Positions 1-42,651 of a DNA stretch of 42,651 bases are shown here, piece after piece. The stretch covers positions 1 through 42,651 of the forward strand of contig JAKSUR010000006.1 in NCBI GenBank assembly GCA_024408765.1, in the 5' to 3' direction. This DNA is from a bacterium (GTDB lineage: Bacteria; Cyanobacteriota; Vampirovibrionia; Gastranaerophilales; Gastranaerophilaceae). Positions within the stretch are counted from its first letter, which is position 1; each line of letters begins with the position of its first letter. A program made the position numbers and the translations under genes. The notes under the pieces were generated by a model. That model worked only from the letters and a program-made list of their open reading frames with translations. It did no database searches and was not told the origin of the DNA.

Positions 1-1074
1 TTTGGTGACTATCTTGAATTTTGCGGTGATGCTATACTTGAAATGGTTAATGACGGTGAAAGAATGGCTATACTGGGTGCTATTGGTGATGATTTGGGTA
101 GCACTTTTATGAAGTTGGTCGACTTTATCGGTCAAGGTGTTTTGAAATTTGTTGAGTGGGTTACTTCGGCAGAGGGGCTTACTACTATTCAAGGTTGGGT
201 TGAAAATTTAACTGATGCCCTTGATTGGTGTATTGATAACTGGGATAGCATTGTGGAAGTTACAAAAAATGCGGTTATTGTGTTTGGTGTCTTGGATGGT
301 ATAGTAAAGTTATTGGTTGGTGGTTTTTCTGCGTATGTTACGTACACAAGTTTAGCTTCTTTCGCTACGGGAGTGCTTGGTGTGTCGCTTGGTGGTTTGG
401 CTGTTACGGCACTCGGAGTTGTTGCGGTAGTTGGTTTGGTAGCTTATGCTATTTATTCTGTGTGGGATATGTTCGCACATTGGGATGAAAAAGTAGCTTG
501 GTGGGAAAAAACTTGGGGTGAAGTTGGTGAGTGGCTTGAATATACCGTAGATTGGTGGAAAGAAGTTTTAGGCAATTTTGCAAAATGGGTTGACGATACC
601 GTTTTTAAGCCTATAACAGAGGGTTGGCAAACATTAATTGATGCGTTTAATGACCCTATTGCAGTACAACAAGCTGTTAATGACCCTGTTGGAAACTGGG
701 TAGATGGTGCAAAAGCTTTGGGGTGGATTCCACACGCTGACGGTGGATTGATGACAAAGCCACATCTTGGGGTTGTAGGTGAAGATGGTCCTGAAATGAT
801 TATTCCATTATCAGCTGACAAACGTGGCTCTGCTGTTGATATGTGGCAAACTACAGGAAATATGCTTGGTGTAAAAAGTTATGGTACAGACAGTTTAAGC
901 GGTGGTAGTACTGTTTATGGTGGTAGCACCAATTATGCACCTACTGTAAACATTAACGTAACAGGCGGTAGCGACAGAGGTACTATAAGGCAGATTGAAG
1001 ATGCTGTAAAAGAGGCTTTGGAAGAGAGTTTTGCTTCGGCTTTAAGACGTAGACCGAGGGAAACTTATGTATAG
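1..1074 (+). CDS. Tail tape measure protein, C-terminal part (gene split by window ends)
   Basis: The frame is open from base 1, so this is the end of a gene that begins at 41439. The last 11 codons of the window repeat the first 11 codons here, apart from Glu/Asp at one position, and joining them gives a protein of about 750 residues. Tape measure proteins set tail length and line the tail tube. A long hydrophobic stretch lies at about 300-460, followed by Trp-rich amphipathic segments. Near the end (about 740-820) is the motif GGLMTKPHLGVVGEDGPEMI, typical of Firmicutes tape measure C-termini. A baseplate gene follows 11 bases later, as expected. Confidence 0.9.
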   Translation, partial: FGDYLEFCGDAILEMVNDGERMAILGAIGDDLGSTFMKLVDFIGQGVLKFVEWVTSAEGLTTIQGWVENLTDALDWCIDNWDSIVEVTKNAVIVFGVLDGIVKLLVGGFSAYVTYTSLASFATGVLGVSLGGLAVTALGVVAVVGLVAYAIYSVWDMFAHWDEKVAWWEKTWGEVGEWLEYTVDWWKEVLGNFAKWVDDTVFKPITEGWQTLIDAFNDPIAVQQAVNDPVGNWVDGAKALGWIPHADGGLMTKPHLGVVGEDGPEMIIPLSADKRGSAVDMWQTTGNMLGVKSYGTDSLSGGSTVYGGSTNYAPTVNINVTGGSDRGTIRQIEDAVKEALEESFASALRRRPRETYV

Positions 1075-4965: not shown

Positions 4966-5949
4966 ATGAGAAAACAAAAAATTTCTATTGATGAACAAAT
5001 TGAAAAAATGCGTTCTGTTGGAATTAAATTTGATAATATTTCAGAAAATGAAGCCAAAGATTTTATTTGTAATAATACATATTATTTTAAGATTAAAGCA
5101 TTTCAAAAAAATTATGAAAAAAATTCAAAAGGGAAATACGTTAATTTAGATTTTTCATATTTAAAAGATTTTTCAACAATTGATATGCAGTTTAGAAACT
5201 TAGTTCTTTCTATGGCATTAAATATTGAGCATAGTATGAAAGTTAAATTAAATAGGGATATATCAGAAAATGAAAAGGAAGATGGATATTCCATTGTGAA
5301 TAAATTTTTAAATAATAAGGGTAATCAATATATAGTTAAGAATTTATATACAAAGGTTTGTTCAAATTATGCAGGTGATTTAATAAAAAAATATTGTTCT
5401 TATAAATATGATCTGAATTCTGAATTAACATATACTTTTGAATGTCCTTTTTGGGTTTTAATTGAAATTTTATCATTTGGGGATTTTATTAATTTTTATA
5501 ATTTTTATTATGCTCAATATGAATTGGAGAATCCTATCAAAGATATTTTATTTCCAATAAAGTATTTAAGAAATGCATCAGCACATAATAATTGTGTCCT
5601 AAATTCTTTAAAACGTTCAAATCATACTGGATTTTCTGCTAATAAAAAAGTAAATTCTTATGTATCGAAAATAAAGAATATATCTAAAAATTCACGAAAT
5701 AAATGTATGAGTATTCCTGTTTTACACGATTTTGCCGCATTACTAATGGTGTATGTCAAAGTTGTTAATAGTGAATCTGTTTTAAAACATACAGCTGATG
5801 ATTTACAATCTTTTTTAGATAGATTCAACAGAAATAAGGAATACTATGCACTAAACAATGTTATAAATATGGCATATATTTTTTTAGAAAAAGTTATTGA
5901 CAATTATAATAAAATAGTGTATAATAACGATAGTGTTCAAAAACCGTGA
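4966..5949 (+). CDS. Abi_2-family (AbiF/AbiD-type) abortive infection protein, HEPN ribonuclease-like
   Basis: A 327-residue protein starting after GAGGTGATGAAAA. The N-terminus (TIDEQI-type helix, then NNTYYFKIKAFQKNYE) and the core (FWVLIEILSFGDFINFY, then IKYLRNASAHNN) match Abi_2 proteins. The RNxxxH motif of HEPN ribonucleases is intact at Arg202-His207. AbiF proteins act as toxins that stop phage infection, probably by cleaving RNA, and are reported to be controlled by a neighbouring small RNA. The gene sits inside the baseplate operon with its own promoter and terminator, so it is a classic moron. It is more AT-rich by eye than the flanking genes, and Lys, Asn and Ile codons dominate, suggesting separate acquisition. 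Confidence 0.85.
   Translation: MRKQKISIDEQIEKMRSVGIKFDNISENEAKDFICNNTYYFKIKAFQKNYEKNSKGKYVNLDFSYLKDFSTIDMQFRNLVLSMALNIEHSMKVKLNRDISENEKEDGYSIVNKFLNNKGNQYIVKNLYTKVCSNYAGDLIKKYCSYKYDLNSELTYTFECPFWVLIEILSFGDFINFYNFYYAQYELENPIKDILFPIKYLRNASAHNNCVLNSLKRSNHTGFSANKKVNSYVSKIKNISKNSRNKCMSIPVLHDFAALLMVYVKVVNSESVLKHTADDLQSFLDRFNRNKEYYALNNVINMAYIFLEKVIDNYNKIVYNNDSVQKP
5897..5925 (+). promoter_or_regulatory. Consensus promoter inside the 3' end of abi, reading into a candidate RNA gene
   Basis: TTGACA (5897-5902), a 17-base spacer, then TATAAT (5920-5925): both hexamers are perfect consensus. The predicted start is near 5932, within the last codons of abi. Terminator-like hairpins follow within 80-150 bases, before the next gene, so the likely product is a short RNA and not the baseplate mRNA. 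Confidence 0.75.
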
Positions 5950-11592: not shown

Positions 11593-12375
11593 TTACATAT
11601 AAACAGAATTTTGATTAATATATAGGAATATTATAAAAACCGCAATTAAAAACAAAGCAGAATTAAATTGATCTAATTTTAAAAAATTAGTATCTTTGTT
11701 GTTTATTTTCAAAATAAATTTTAATAAAATATTGATAGTGTTAGTAAGTATAAAAGCAAGTAAATCAATTACCAATGTTAATCTATAAATACTCACTTTA
11801 TCTATATTTTCAAGAACTGAACTTGAAAATGTTATACCACCGACAAACGCAAGAAGTATTGCGGCAAATATACCTAATATAGTTATATTGTCTTTTTCTA
11901 TATTTTTTACCTCATTGGAGAGTTTATCAACAGAAACTGATGTAAGATTTTTTGCAGTATCGTTAAAAACTGTAATTTGAGTATTAGCAAGTTGAACGTG
12001 ATCATAAAATTTATACACAAAAAGCATTGTTTCGTTATTTTCGTCAAGATTAGTTATTGTATATTCCAACAAACTTTCAAGATTTGAAAAGAAATTGGTT
12101 TTTTCATTCTCATCAAAAGAAAAAATATTATTTGATACTTCGTGATATAAAATTCTGTTTATAGTACTTTTGTCATTAATATAACTATTTATAAGATTGA
12201 TGGTTTTTTCAGGTTTATAAGTTTCGTATTCTTTTGATAATGACTTACATAGCTTTGATATTGATTTTTTTCTTTCTTTAATCTTTGATAATTTTGAAGA
12301 ATTATCATAATTGAAACTTATATCTTTCCCATTGGTTGTTTTTTCAAGAGAACCTAAATCATTATTTCTTGACAT
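11593..12375 (-). CDS. Three-helix membrane protein, candidate PanT-type toxin
   Basis: A 260-residue protein with AAAGGAG before its ATG. The N-terminal 160 residues are charged and helical, including a long Lys/Ser-rich start and FYDHVQLANTQITVFNDTAKN. The C-terminal 100 residues hold three membrane segments (ILGIFAAILLAFVGGITF, LTLVIDLLAFILTN, LFLIAVFIIFLYI). It overlaps the preceding Panacea-domain gene by 14 bases. Panacea antitoxins pair with many unrelated toxins, some acting on membranes, and the partner is normally the adjacent gene. Toxicity is inferred from this pairing alone; I do not recognise the N-terminal domain. Confidence 0.6.
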   Translation of the reverse strand: MSRNNDLGSLEKTTNGKDISFNYDNSSKLSKIKERKKSISKLCKSLSKEYETYKPEKTINLINSYINDKSTINRILYHEVSNNIFSFDENEKTNFFSNLESLLEYTITNLDENNETMLFVYKFYDHVQLANTQITVFNDTAKNLTSVSVDKLSNEVKNIEKDNITILGIFAAILLAFVGGITFSSSVLENIDKVSIYRLTLVIDLLAFILTNTINILLKFILKINNKDTNFLKLDQFNSALFLIAVFIIFLYINQNSVYM

Positions 12376-12844
12376 TAAAATACTCCTTTATAGAATCTAT
12401 GGTAATTTCAGTATCGCATCCTTTTTCATAAGCCTCTATCCAAGGTGTTTGATGGTGCGTTAATTCAACTAATTGTGTAGCTGTATAGTTTTCAAATTTA
12501 TTCACAACATCATTTATTAATTTTTTATCAGGTTTAGATATAATTTCATCATTATATTTTTTCTTTTCTATATCCCAAATATCATCAGAAACTATAAAAT
12601 AAAACTTTATTTTAGGTATATTACCACCACCAAATTGTTTGTATTCGTGATAGGCTTTTGGAATTACAGGTCCGAATCCCCAAGCCTCTATACGGTCATT
12701 AAAACATATATTTTTTTTCTTAATTAAGAAATAAGCCTGAACAAAATATAATATCTTTTGTAACTTCAAATTTGAAATACCTTCTTCTTTACTATTACTG
12801 TAATTTATTATATATCTGCTTACATCTAAAACATCATAAATCAT
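12362..12844 (-). CDS. Panacea-domain (DUF4065/SocA-like) antitoxin
   Basis: A 160-residue protein with AAAGGAG nine bases before ATG. The motifs ISNLKLQKILYFVQAYFL, IEAWGFGPVIPKAYHEYKQF and THHQTPWIEAYEKG are the standard signature of the Panacea domain (formerly DUF4065, GepA/SocA). These proteins neutralise diverse toxins in PanAT modules, which are common in prophages. It is first in a two-gene leftward unit with the membrane protein. A TATAAT on its strand (about 12868-12873) with a poor -35 box may give it a separate promoter from the repressor. Confidence 0.88.
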   Translation of the reverse strand: MIYDVLDVSRYIINYSNSKEEGISNLKLQKILYFVQAYFLIKKKNICFNDRIEAWGFGPVIPKAYHEYKQFGGGNIPKIKFYFIVSDDIWDIEKKKYNDEIISKPDKKLINDVVNKFENYTATQLVELTHHQTPWIEAYEKGCDTEITIDSIKEYFNVKK

Positions 12845-28796: not shown

Positions 28797-28830
28797 GTTG
28801 TACAATGGTAATGCAGATAGAAATATGCTG

Positions 28831-28917
28831 TATAATTGTGTAACTGAATTAATATTTAAACGATATGTAATATCGTCAGCTACAATGGTTAAAGCACTCT
28901 TCGGGGTGCTTTTTTTA
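28831..28917 (+). ncRNA. Possible short RNA with UUCG-loop terminator
   Basis: TATAAT at 28831-28836 (poor -35) is followed by CGATATGTAATATCG, a small hairpin, and a 9-bp terminator at 28891-28912 closed by a cUUCGg tetraloop and a long T run. A short leader RNA could be made. The promoter call is weak. Confidence 0.4.
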
Positions 28918-28932
28918 TACCCAAAAATAAAC

Positions 28933-39752: not shown

Positions 39753-40157
39753 ATGGCTATGGCATTTGGTGTTTATGATGCAAAAGACAGTTCTGTAATG
39801 ATTGACGGTGTTTACATTACGGGATTTTCGGAAGATATGTTATCTATCGAAAAAGACGAAGATTTATTTGAAACAGAAGTGGGTGCACAGGGTGATGTGG
39901 TTAAAAATATCGTAAATGACCCTTTAGGTACTACTACAATTAAAGTACAGGCTACTTCTCCACAAGCAGGTTATCTTTTAAGTCTTGCAAAAAGACGTGA
40001 GCCTTTCCCATTATGGTACATTAACAAGAATATGGGTGAAAAAATGGGTGGTACTATGGCAAACCTTATTAAATATCCTACGGTGGAAAGACAGAAAACT
40101 GCTACTGAATGGGAATTTACGTTTAAGATTTTTGATTTAGTAATGGATAAGACTTGA
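39753..40157 (+). CDS. Tail tube protein (DUF3277-like)
   Basis: 134 residues from ATG 39753, after GACAGGGGGTAATA. VYDAKDSSVMIDGVYITGFS, LFETEVGAQGDVVKNIVNDP and ATEWEFTFKIFDLVMDKT are typical of myophage tube proteins of DUF3277. Its stop codon overlaps the -35 box of the first small promoter in the next region. Confidence 0.88.
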   Translation: MAMAFGVYDAKDSSVMIDGVYITGFSEDMLSIEKDEDLFETEVGAQGDVVKNIVNDPLGTTTIKVQATSPQAGYLLSLAKRREPFPLWYINKNMGEKMGGTMANLIKYPTVERQKTATEWEFTFKIFDLVMDKT

Positions 40158-40189
40158 CAATTGGGTGTTTTTTGATGTAAAATTATAAT
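40154..40189 (+). promoter_or_regulatory. Promoter at the tube gene stop
   Basis: TTGACA (40154-40159) with TAAAAT 18 bases on (40178-40183); a TATAAT at 40184-40189 pairs with a poorer -35. It reads toward the hairpin and the Cas12a-type repeat. Confidence 0.65.
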
Positions 40190-40235
40190 GTAACATTTGG
40201 ACTTACCTCGCATTTGTTATTTCTTTCGTAAAGTT

Positions 40236-40263
40236 CCCCTCGGTCTTATGATTGAGGGGTTTT
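40236..40263 (+). terminator. Hairpin just upstream of the Cas12a-type repeat
   Basis: CCCCTCGGTC (40236-40245) pairs with GATTGAGGGG (40250-40259), loop TTAT, then four T. Either a weak terminator or a structured 5' flank of the repeat RNA; only six bases separate it from the repeat (40266). With it ends the short unit that starts at 40154. Confidence 0.7.
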
Positions 40264-40265
40264 AA

Positions 40266-40308
40266 AATTTCTACTGTTGTAGATTTGTTGCAGAAATGTC
40301 GAAAAAAT
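40266..40308 (+). ncRNA. Solitary Cas12a-type crRNA-like unit (repeat plus spacer)
   Basis: Bases 40266-40284 read AATTTCTACTGTTGTAGAT. As I recall the family, this is identical to the processed direct-repeat handle of FnCas12a crRNA, including the TCTAC-TGTT-GTAGA hairpin. No second repeat follows, and no cas gene is in the window. The adjoining bases TTGTTGCAGAAATGTCGAAA (40285-40304) act as a spacer and match 41076-41096 with two mismatches and one bulged base, next to a TTTA PAM. A host Cas12a could process this from the late mRNA. It may silence the 41079 promoter, act as a decoy guide (RNA anti-CRISPR), or both. Confidence 0.8.
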
Positions 40309-40312
40309 GTTG

Positions 40313-40341
40313 TTGACGCAACATAGATAGTATGTTATGAT
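40313..40341 (+). promoter_or_regulatory. Promoter downstream of the crRNA-like unit
   Basis: TTGACG (40313-40318), a 17-base spacer, then TATGAT (40336-40341), with an extended -10 TGT. Confidence 0.75.
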
Positions 40342-40347
40342 TATTAT

Positions 40348-40442
40348 GAGCATACAGCTACTATTCTGATATTATAATCAGATGGAAACCTTCTTGTATT
40401 AAGATTTGTAAACCGATTGGAGTTTCTTCAATCGGTTTTTTA
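40348..40442 (+). ncRNA. Candidate small leader RNA before the chaperone gene
   Basis: The predicted transcript holds TCTGAT/ATCAGA and ends at a terminator, AAACCGATTG (40410-40419) with CAATCGGTTT (40429-40438), and a T run. No ORF above eight codons. It may be an attenuator leader of the chaperone gene, whose ribosome site follows within ten bases, or a free RNA. Confidence 0.5.
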
Positions 40443-40461
40443 TTGAAAGGATTGAAAAATT

Positions 40462-41056: not shown

Positions 41057-41075
41057 ATATTAAAAGAGAATTTTA

Positions 41076-41107
41076 TTATTGACGGAAATGTCGAAATGTG
41101 TTAGAAT
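41076..41107 (+). promoter_or_regulatory. Promoter of the 30-residue peptide, with Cas12a-type target site
   Basis: TTGACG (41079-41084), a 17-base spacer and TAGAAT (41102-41107) with extended -10 TGT. Bases 41076-41096 align with the spacer at 40285-40304, and 41072-41075 read TTTA, a canonical Cas12a PAM on the proper side. The 3' half of the match is a perfect 12-mer, GAAATGTCGAAA. A bound Cas12a would cover the -35 box and half the spacer. Confidence 0.75.
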
Positions 41108-41175
41108 ATGACCTGTAGGGAATAACTGGCGGTTGTTTCTTCACTCCTATCCTTGAAGAAAGGGGGAGTGATAAT

Positions 41176-41268
41176 ATGGATATATTATTAACCATTGTTG
41201 CTATTACAACGATAGCCTATAATGTAACTTCAATTATCTTTATGATTATTGACCATATAAAAAAATAA
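41176..41268 (+). CDS. 30-residue membrane peptide, candidate type I toxin
   Basis: ATG after a strong AAAGGGGGAGTGATAAT site. One hydrophobic span, ILLTIVAITTIAYNVTSIIF, then MIIDHIKK: the size, span and Lys ending of type I toxins such as those of Bacillus and C. difficile prophages. The gene has its own promoter, a bidirectional terminator at its stop, and a facing consensus promoter 110 bases beyond. All of this lies between tail chaperone and tape measure, where such a peptide has no structural role. Confidence 0.7.
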   Translation: MDILLTIVAITTIAYNVTSIIFMIIDHIKK

Positions 41269-41347
41269 CCGCCCTGTCTCCAAACTTGTGCGGTTATTTT
41301 TTTGTAACCTGATATAAGTGAAGAAACAGCCAAAGGTTATTCCTTAC
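41258..41347 (-). ncRNA. Antisense RNA converging on the peptide gene
   Basis: Starting near 41347, the RNA would run to the shared terminator and overlap the 3' end of the peptide mRNA by about 45 bases. Its first 27 bases are similar to, not complementary to, those of the peptide mRNA (GGAATAAC, then TGTTTCTTCAC at 41118-41144 and, reversed, 41318-41344), so the two units look like an inverted duplication. Typical of convergent type I antitoxin RNAs. Confidence 0.65.
41261..41303. terminator. Bidirectional terminator shared by peptide mRNA and antisense RNA
   Basis: AAAAATAACCGC (41261-41272) pairs perfectly with 41290-41301. A run of A before and T after makes it act on both strands. The peptide's stop codon lies in its left arm. 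Confidence 0.88.
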
Positions 41348-41353
41348 ACTTTA

Positions 41354-41382
41354 ATTATATATCATTATTTTTTGATTGTCAA
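41354..41382 (-). promoter_or_regulatory. Promoter of the antisense RNA
   Basis: On the minus strand: TTGACA (41382-41377), a 17-base spacer and TATAAT (41359-41354), perfect consensus. It is stronger by sequence than the facing peptide promoter. Confidence 0.85.
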
Positions 41383-41394
41383 TAAAAATTTTGA

Positions 41395-41418
41395 ACACTC
41401 CTAAAGGGGTGTTTTTTT
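41395..41418 (+). terminator. Terminator just before the tape measure gene
   Basis: ACACTCC (41395-41401) pairs with GGGGTGT (41406-41412), loop TAAA, then T. The tape measure ribosome site starts about ten bases later and no promoter lies between. Confidence 0.78.
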
Positions 41419-41438: not shown

Positions 41439-42651
41439 ATGGCTGATAGTAGTATTTTGCGTGAAGACGTGGTGCGTGTGACGATTGAAACTGATACAAG
41501 CGGACTTCGTACGGCAGAACAGCAAACAGACAGATTAGCGAATGATTTAGGACGTTTAGGCGGTGCAGGGAATGAAGCCGAAAACAGCCTTAATAATCTT
41601 GGTGGAACAGCTGAACAGATGGGTGAAGATGTTGAGGGTGCTAACAGCGAACTTGATATGTTAAGGCGAATATCAGGACAGCTTGACGGTGGTTTGGCAA
41701 CTCTTACAAGTATTCTTGAAAGAATGGGAAATCAGGAACGTAGAAACAGTAGTAATACGCAAGATTTAAGGCAACAGTTAATTAAATTGGGGCAGGAAAA
41801 ATTGACACAATTGAGCAATGCCCTTGATAATATCGCTAAAAAATTAGGTGGTGCTGTTGTTAATGCGGCAAAATCTGCACTTACTGCGTTACGTAATTTT
41901 GCTGTTGCAGGTGCTACGGCTATTGGTGGTTTAATTGCTGTAGGGGTAAAATATAACTCTACTATGGAGCAATTTCAGACAAGTTTTACTACTATGTTAG
42001 GTAGTGCTGATAAGGCTGTTGATTTTACTGAAAAATTAAGACAAATGGCGGCAAAAACTCCTTTTGGTATGAATGATTTAGCACAAGCATCACAAACACT
42101 TTTAGGATATGGAATTGCAGAAAAAGAAGTTTTGCCGTACTTAAAACAATTAGGTGATATTTCGCAAGGTAACAAAGATAAATTACAAGGTTTAACTCTT
42201 GCATTTTCACAGGCTATGTCAACGGGTAAGTTGATGGGACAAGACCTTTTACAGATGATAAATCAAGGGTTTAACCCTTTAAAAAATATTGCAGAACGTA
42301 CAGGCAAATCAATAGGACAGTTAAAAGAGGAAATGTCAAAGGGTGCAATATCAGCTGAAATGGTGGCACAGGCTTTTGAAGATGCCACATCAGAGGGCGG
42401 ACTTTTTTATAATGCAATGGAAAAGCAATCACAGACTTTTAACGGTCAAATCAGTACATTAAAAGATAACTGGAGTGCTTTTATAGGCGAAATGACAAGC
42501 GGCATACAAGAATTACTTAAAAATACGGCTTTACCTGCTATTAACGAACAATTAAAAGCATTTAAAGAGGCTTTTGAAGAAGACGGATTTAGGGGCATTA
42601 TAAGAAAATTCGGTGTATTTGGTGACTATCTTGACTTTTGCGGTGATGCTA
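41439..42651 (+). CDS. Tail tape measure protein, N-terminal part (continues at base 1)
   Basis: ATG after GGAAAGGGGGCGAGAGA. The frame runs off the end of the window after 404 codons and continues at base 1, after removing the 34-base overlap. VRVTIETDTSGLRTAEQQTD, a hydrophobic-helical region at 140-170, and FQTSFTTMLGSADKAVDFTE, LRQMAAKTPFGMNDLAQASQ, and QGLTLAFSQAMSTGKLMGQD are the N-terminal domain of TP901-type tape measure proteins. The total length of about 750 residues is moderate for a myophage tail. Confidence 0.93.
   Translation, partial: MADSSILREDVVRVTIETDTSGLRTAEQQTDRLANDLGRLGGAGNEAENSLNNLGGTAEQMGEDVEGANSELDMLRRISGQLDGGLATLTSILERMGNQERRNSSNTQDLRQQLIKLGQEKLTQLSNALDNIAKKLGGAVVNAAKSALTALRNFAVAGATAIGGLIAVGVKYNSTMEQFQTSFTTMLGSADKAVDFTEKLRQMAAKTPFGMNDLAQASQTLLGYGIAEKEVLPYLKQLGDISQGNKDKLQGLTLAFSQAMSTGKLMGQDLLQMINQGFNPLKNIAERTGKSIGQLKEEMSKGAISAEMVAQAFEDATSEGGLFYNAMEKQSQTFNGQISTLKDNWSAFIGEMTSGIQELLKNTALPAINEQLKAFKEAFEEDGFRGIIRKFGVFGDYLDFCGDA
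42618..42651. repeat. Terminal repeat shared with bases 1-34
   Basis: The last 34 bases equal the first 34 except at one position (A at 17, C at 42634), changing Glu to Asp in the tape measure protein. It indicates a circular map, or a circularly permuted genome, cut inside a gene. The mismatch may be an assembly error or strain variation. Confidence 0.85.

What the first reader, a model, noticed from the sequence alone, without database searches (positions are those of the whole stretch)
40266..40308. Solitary Cas12a direct repeat inside a structural operon (possible RNA anti-CRISPR)
Independently of the promoter match, a 19-base identity to a Cas12a handle in 42 kb is very unlikely by chance. 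There is no array and no cas gene. Phage-borne solitary repeat units are described as RNA anti-CRISPRs (Racr) that occupy Cas proteins with a useless guide. Because Cas12a processes its own pre-crRNA, the abundant late mRNA itself could act as decoy. The stable hairpin six bases upstream could shield or terminate the RNA.
Basis: partly seen in the sequence, partly recalled or inferred. Interest (0 to 1): 0.9.

Follow-up and report, generated by a model that had tools for sequence, protein, structure and literature searches.

The report
Lone Cas12a repeat in phage genome
A phage genome carries, in an extra non-coding segment between two tail genes, one exact copy of the RNA handle that the bacterial defence nuclease Cas12a grips; it is probably a decoy that ties Cas12a up, a known kind of RNA anti-CRISPR.

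Summary
AATTTCTACTGTTGTAGAT, the Cas12a crRNA handle, lies exactly at 40266-40284(+), once, with no array or cas gene nearby. It is not chance. In 286 genomes of the order, the pattern occurs only here and in type V-A arrays, and the reversed control occurs nowhere. In IMG/VR the handle occurs in 103 stretches against 6 for the control; 57 of 75 distinct sites are intergenic, against 13.6% of random positions. The repeat sits in a 304-bp non-coding insert between tail tube and the next tail gene; six relatives have 3-65 bp there. The insert has two promoter-like sites, a 10-bp hairpin and a terminator. This matches published solitary repeat units/Racrs, three of which inhibit a V-A system. So: probable new member of a known kind, an RNA decoy for Cas12a. 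Weak points: no Cas12a in the MAG or 65 congeneric genomes, although six same-family genomes carry V-A arrays, one with the identical repeat; function untested. Most novel reading not excluded: the guide-like 25 nt resembles the promoter of a nearby 30-aa hydrophobic peptide (PAM-adjacent but with a bulge; post hoc p about 0.002-0.02), hinting at Cas12a-guided repression of a toxin. I consider this unlikely.

The parts
40266..40284 (+). Cas12a crRNA handle (solitary direct-repeat core) AATTTCTACTGTTGTAGAT; hairpin UCUAC-UGUU-GUAGA
   Evidence: exact pattern match; hairpin in MFE and centroid folds; same variant as the array repeat of same-family genome G143
40285..40309 (+). guide-like stretch that Cas12a would retain after processing, TTGTTGCAGAAATGTCGAAAAAATG
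   Evidence: position directly 3' of the handle; no protospacer-quality match in the window or in the sampled V-A cas loci
40236..40259 (+). stable 10-bp hairpin six bases upstream of the handle; followed by only four T, so a weak terminator at best
   Evidence: folds; not called as a terminator
40154..40183 (+). promoter-like site P1 (TTGACA-18-TAAAAT, 11/12) overlapping the end of the tail tube gene; would transcribe the handle
   Evidence: consensus scan, not evidence of activity
40313..40341 (+). promoter-like site P2 (TTGACG-17-TATGAT with TG extension), downstream of the handle, with an ATGTTG-N6-CAACAT palindrome over its -35
   Evidence: consensus scan; palindrome unique in window
40410..40438 (+). 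intrinsic terminator that closes the non-coding insert
   Evidence: 13-bp stem then U-run
40158..40461 (+). non-coding insert carrying the handle, between tail tube and next tail gene
   Evidence: 304 bp here against about 20 bp in L109, about 65 bp in L177, and 3-64 bp in phages Roos, B054, Pd_22F and EauM-23
41076..41098 (+). possible Cas12a target: TTTA PAM (41072-41075) then TTATTGACGGAAATGTCGAAATG inside the promoter of the small peptide (rival reading only)
   Evidence: 12-nt identity GAAATGTCGAAA; local alignment with one bulge, p about 0.002 within 2 kb and 0.018 over all promoters, post hoc
41176..41268 (+). ORF for a 30-aa hydrophobic peptide MDILLTIVAITTIAYNVTSIIFMIIDHIKK, type I toxin-like by appearance (rival reading only)
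   Evidence: read from sequence; no Pfam match; converging antisense promoter 41382-41354(-), 12/12

Best explanation
The element is a solitary Cas12a repeat unit, that is, an RNA anti-CRISPR (Racr) candidate of type V-A. When the insert is transcribed, from its own promoter-like site P1 or by read-through of the tail operon, the RNA presents a complete Cas12a handle. Host Cas12a should bind it and cut 5' of the handle, as it does its own pre-crRNA, and then keep a useless guide (25 nt of phage non-coding RNA). The enzyme is thereby occupied and cannot use guides against the phage. Shown here: the exact handle, its predicted hairpin fold, its solitary state, its placement in a non-coding insert with promoter-like sites and terminator, and the over-representation of such solitary handles in phages. 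Inferred: transcription, binding, processing and inhibition.
For: Exact handle, not chance. Solitary handles in IMG/VR: 103 against 6 for a reversed control; 57 of 75 distinct ones intergenic against 13.6% expected. Hairpin folds in context, and the whole insert RNA folds better than shuffles, z = -4.85. The insert is absent at this junction in six relatives. Same-family genomes carry V-A arrays, one (G143) with the identical repeat variant. Published: 2,103 viral solitary repeat units; three V-A Racrs inhibit M. bovoculi Cas12a in PAO1 (PMC10651486).
Against: No Cas12a in the MAG or in 65 genomes of its genus; the host is known only from binning, although GC (33.5 vs 33.2%) and tetranucleotide usage fit the MAG about as well as any sampled V-A genome. 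Only the 20-nt core is shared with family repeats, not the full 36 nt, though the core suffices for Cas12a by established knowledge. None of the 68 sampled V-A spacers, nor those of G329 and G372, matches this phage. No expression data.
Confidence: 0.62

Rival explanations
1. Cas12a-guided repression of a phage gene (CreA/CreR-like). The handle plus guide-like stretch forms a crRNA-like RNA that directs host Cas12a to the promoter of the 30-aa hydrophobic peptide 800 bp downstream. Incomplete pairing would allow binding without cutting, so the peptide would be expressed only when Cas12a is absent or disabled.
For: 12-nt identity inside that promoter. An 18/21 alignment with one bulge next to a TTTA PAM covers the -35 region. 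Random positions reach this score against a promoter within 2 kb in 0.2% of cases, against any promoter-like site in 1.8%. CreTA and V-A CreR are known kinds (PMC12737573).
Against: The bulge falls at guide position 6/7, in the seed, where Cas12a tolerates it poorly (established knowledge). The match is post hoc and not significant over the whole window. Guides of other phage solitary handles show no self-match excess. The peptide locus has its own converging antisense promoter, so it looks like an ordinary type I system. No homologous pair was found to test covariation.
Confidence: 0.08
2. The handle is a Cas12a cleavage site in mRNA: it does not inhibit Cas12a but is cut by it, changing the stability or expression of the neighbouring tail transcripts in Cas12a-bearing hosts.
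For: Handles lie between stop codon and ribosome-binding site inside head or tail operons of other phages (L101, L105, L057, L072).
Against: Here the handle lies in an insert with its own terminator rather than directly before a gene. Cleavage and sequestration are not separable by sequence.
Confidence: 0.1
3. A relic: remnant of a V-A repeat acquired from a host or of a lost mini-array, without present function.
For: Genus lacks Cas12a; single copy; 5' part of the family repeat is missing.
Against: The 19-nt core is perfect while everything around it differs from a repeat; solitary cores are strongly over-represented in phages.
Confidence: 0.12
4. Chance or convergence: a promoter/operator or hairpin that happens to equal the handle.
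For: AT-rich non-coding DNA; an 11-nt quasi-period GTTGTAGATTT/GTTGCAGAAAT runs through it.
Against: 0 control and 0 non-array matches in about 0.55 Gb of related genomes: chance in 42.6 kb is below about 2e-4.
Confidence: 0.04

Closest known systems
Type V-A Racrs / solitary repeat units (Camara-Wilpert et al. 2023, PMC10651486)
   Same: single repeat core in phage intergenic DNA, no cas genes or array, promoter-like site upstream, repeat hairpin preserved
   Different: only the processed handle (about 20 nt) is shared; lies inside a tail operon with a hairpin before it and a second promoter-like site behind it; genus lacks Cas12a; function untested
CreR / CreTA (CRISPR-regulated RNAs and toxin-antitoxin; PMC12737573, PMC9458426)
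   Same: ectopic repeat followed by a guide-like stretch partly matching a promoter of a small toxin-like gene
   Different: phage-borne; toxin looks like an antisense-controlled peptide; pairing contains a seed bulge; no neighbouring cas genes
Virus-borne mini-CRISPR arrays (PMC6858448)
   Same: repeat with spacer-like sequence on a virus without cas genes
   Different: single repeat, no second repeat, and no protospacer recognised

Membership tests
Racr / solitary repeat unit, type V-A | near-exact match to a CRISPR repeat of one subtype | tested here: met
   19/19 to the Cas12a handle; 20 nt identical to the G143 array repeat
Racr / solitary repeat unit, type V-A | intergenic and not part of an array | tested here: met
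   no second repeat within 3 mismatches in the window and no second exact copy in the MAG
Racr / solitary repeat unit, type V-A | promoter upstream | tested here: inconclusive
   11/12 sigma-70-like site 83 bp upstream; consensus matches are common in this AT-rich DNA
Racr / solitary repeat unit, type V-A | repeat secondary structure kept | tested here: met
   5-bp hairpin in MFE and centroid
Racr / solitary repeat unit, type V-A | host carries the matching CRISPR subtype | tested here: inconclusive
   0 of 65 genomes of the genus, but six same-family genomes have V-A arrays; host known only from binning
Racr / solitary repeat unit, type V-A | RNA binds Cas and inhibits immunity | not testable with these tools
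   needs experiment
CreTA (CRISPR-regulated toxin-antitoxin) | guide pairs PAM-adjacent seed in toxin promoter | tested here: inconclusive
   TTTA PAM and 5/6 seed, then a one-base bulge
CreTA (CRISPR-regulated toxin-antitoxin) | linked to cas genes of the same subtype | tested here: not met
   no Cas12a in MAG
CRISPR array / mini-array | at least two repeats flanking a spacer | tested here: not met
   one repeat only

The most novel reading that the evidence does not exclude
A phage-borne, Cas12a-dependent toxin switch: the solitary handle with its guide-like stretch both occupies host Cas12a and directs it to silence the phage's own peptide-toxin promoter, so that losing or inhibiting Cas12a turns the toxin on (a CreTA-like addiction module built from one Cas12a repeat).
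Probability: 0.07. Interest if true: 0.85.

Novelty: new member of a known kind. Interest (0 to 1): 0.42.

Why it matters
It adds a V-A Racr candidate from a largely uncultured lineage. The survey made to judge it shows that solitary Cas12a handles in phages are strongly over-represented, and that several sit inside head or tail operons, so late structural transcripts may double as Cas12a decoys. That idea is directly testable with standard Cas12a reagents. If the weaker promoter-match reading were right, it would be the first phage-borne Cas12a-controlled toxin known to me.

Tried and rejected
(1) A protospacer for the guide-like stretch in the phage: best ungapped hits are 18/24 and unremarkable. 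(2) A CreR-mimic reading, guide against the cas loci of the V-A genomes: best 15-16 of 20 at a homologous AT-rich site without a TTTV PAM. (3) A general rule that guides of phage solitary handles target their own phage: no excess, ungapped with or without PAM or against promoters with gaps. (4) A general rule that a hairpin precedes the handle: not significant (p = 0.11), while hairpins after the handle are enriched (28% vs 12%, p = 0.004). (5) Spacers of same-family V-A arrays matching the phage: none. (6) Homologues of the whole insert: none in phage or plasmid records, none in 288 same-family genomes beyond the repeat itself and short chance hits, and no handle-plus-guide match in genome contigs. 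(7) Rfam: no RNA family in the insert. (8) Sheath relatives in viral contigs: none.

Full report
What is there. The sequence AATTTCTACTGTTGTAGAT occurs exactly once in the window, at 40266-40284 on the + strand, with no second copy within three mismatches and no second exact copy in the 1.58-Mb MAG to which the window belongs. It is the processed handle of a Cas12a crRNA. In the folded transcript its hairpin UCUAC-UGUU-GUAGA forms in both the minimum-energy and centroid structures.

Is it chance? No. Across 286 genomes of the order (about 0.55 Gb by the listed sizes) the exact pattern occurs only in this window and in type V-A arrays of five genomes, and the pattern read backwards occurs nowhere. 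That bounds the chance of one accidental copy in 42.6 kb to roughly 2e-4 (my arithmetic: three events per 0.55 Gb). In the viral collection the handle occurs in 103 stretches against 6 for the reversed control. After removing near-duplicates, 57 of 75 sites lie outside ORFs of at least 80 aa, against 13.6% of random positions in the same DNA. Solitary Cas12a handles in phages are therefore a real feature, most likely kept by selection.

Surroundings. The window is a temperate myophage: tail sheath (phrog_205), tail tube (phrog_280), tape measure protein, terminase, integrase, CI-like repressor and antirepressor. Its ends repeat over 34 nt, as in a circular or terminally redundant contig. Between the tail tube gene (ends 40157) and the next tail gene (starts 40462) lie 304 bp without a listed ORF. 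In relatives the same junction is short: about 20 bp in L109, about 65 bp in L177, and 3, 52, 46 and 64 bp in phages Roos, B054, Pd_22F and EauM-23. EauM-23 has an annotated terminator-like hairpin right after its tube gene, so the hairpin of the window may be older than the rest of the insert. The insert has promoter-like sites at 40154-40183 and 40313-40341 and a good terminator at 40410-40438. As a whole it folds better than shuffles (z = -4.85). It looks like a non-coding moron.

Host. Cas12a (TIGR04330) is absent from the MAG and from all 65 genomes of its genus; the same search does find Cas12a in two genomes of the order. Six genomes of the same family, in five genera (G110, G115, G143, G203, G329, G372), carry V-A arrays; G143 has the same variant, with G at the variable position. 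The match to the family repeat is 20 nt: the handle plus one base, not the 5' part of the repeat. GC and tetranucleotide usage of the phage fit its MAG about as well as the best of the V-A genomes, so binning is neither confirmed nor contradicted. None of the V-A spacers sampled matches this phage.

Most likely mechanism. The RNA made from this insert offers Cas12a a perfect handle; Cas12a, which processes its own pre-crRNA, would cut before it and retain a guide of no use. Three type V-A Racr candidates inhibited the Moraxella bovoculi system reconstituted in P. aeruginosa (PMC10651486). Transcription, binding and inhibition are inferred here, not shown. Hairpins within 50 nt downstream of phage handles are enriched (28% vs 12%, p = 0.004), upstream ones are not.

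The rival that would be new. The 25 nt after the handle share GAAATGTCGAAA with the promoter (41079-41107) of a 30-aa hydrophobic peptide at 41176-41268. With one bulge the alignment extends to TTGTTG-CAGAAATGTCGAAA against TTATTGACGGAAATGTCGAAA, directly after a TTTA PAM. Random positions in this phage reach that score against a promoter-like site within 2 kb in 0.2% of trials and against any promoter-like site in 1.8%. Against the whole window the match is ordinary, the test was chosen after seeing the match, and the bulge lies in the seed. Guides of other phage solitary handles show no such tendency. The peptide locus has a perfect converging promoter and an inverted repeat, as in antisense-controlled type I toxin-antitoxin loci, and so does not need Cas12a for control. 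I keep this reading at 7-8%.

Verdict. Observation confirmed; interpretation reasonable and probably right in kind. It is a new member of a known kind, the type V-A solitary repeat units/Racrs, with an unresolved host question and no functional proof.

Noticed in passing
window 41079-41414: Type I toxin-antitoxin-like cassette inserted before the tape measure gene: 30-aa hydrophobic peptide (41176-41268), bidirectional terminator near 41270-41303, converging 12/12 promoter 41382-41354(-), inverted repeat 41114-41151/41311-41348 so that both RNAs would start with similar leaders; weak sub-threshold BsrG similarity.
   Followed up: partly
window 40307-40324: Palindrome ATGTTG-N6-CAACAT over the -35 of promoter-like site P2, unique in the window; looks like an operator.
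   Followed up: no
window 28806-28922: Rfam DUF3800-I RNA (88.7 bits, gathering 44.2), an orphan RNA motif, just before an AntA/KilAC antirepressor gene.
   Followed up: no
window 4966-5949: AbiD-like abortive infection protein among the tail/baseplate genes (PADLOC 1.4e-17).
   Followed up: no
window 11593-12844 (-): SocA/Panacea-domain antitoxin gene (12362-12844) overlapping a 260-aa gene for a protein with hydrophobic segments (11593-12375): possible phage toxin-antitoxin pair.
   Followed up: no
L101, L105, L057, L072: Solitary Cas12a handles placed between stop codon and ribosome-binding site inside head or tail operons of unrelated phages; a recurrent arrangement worth a systematic survey.
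   Followed up: partly
window 1-34 and 42618-42651: 97% identical ends, consistent with a circular or terminally redundant phage contig.
   Followed up: no
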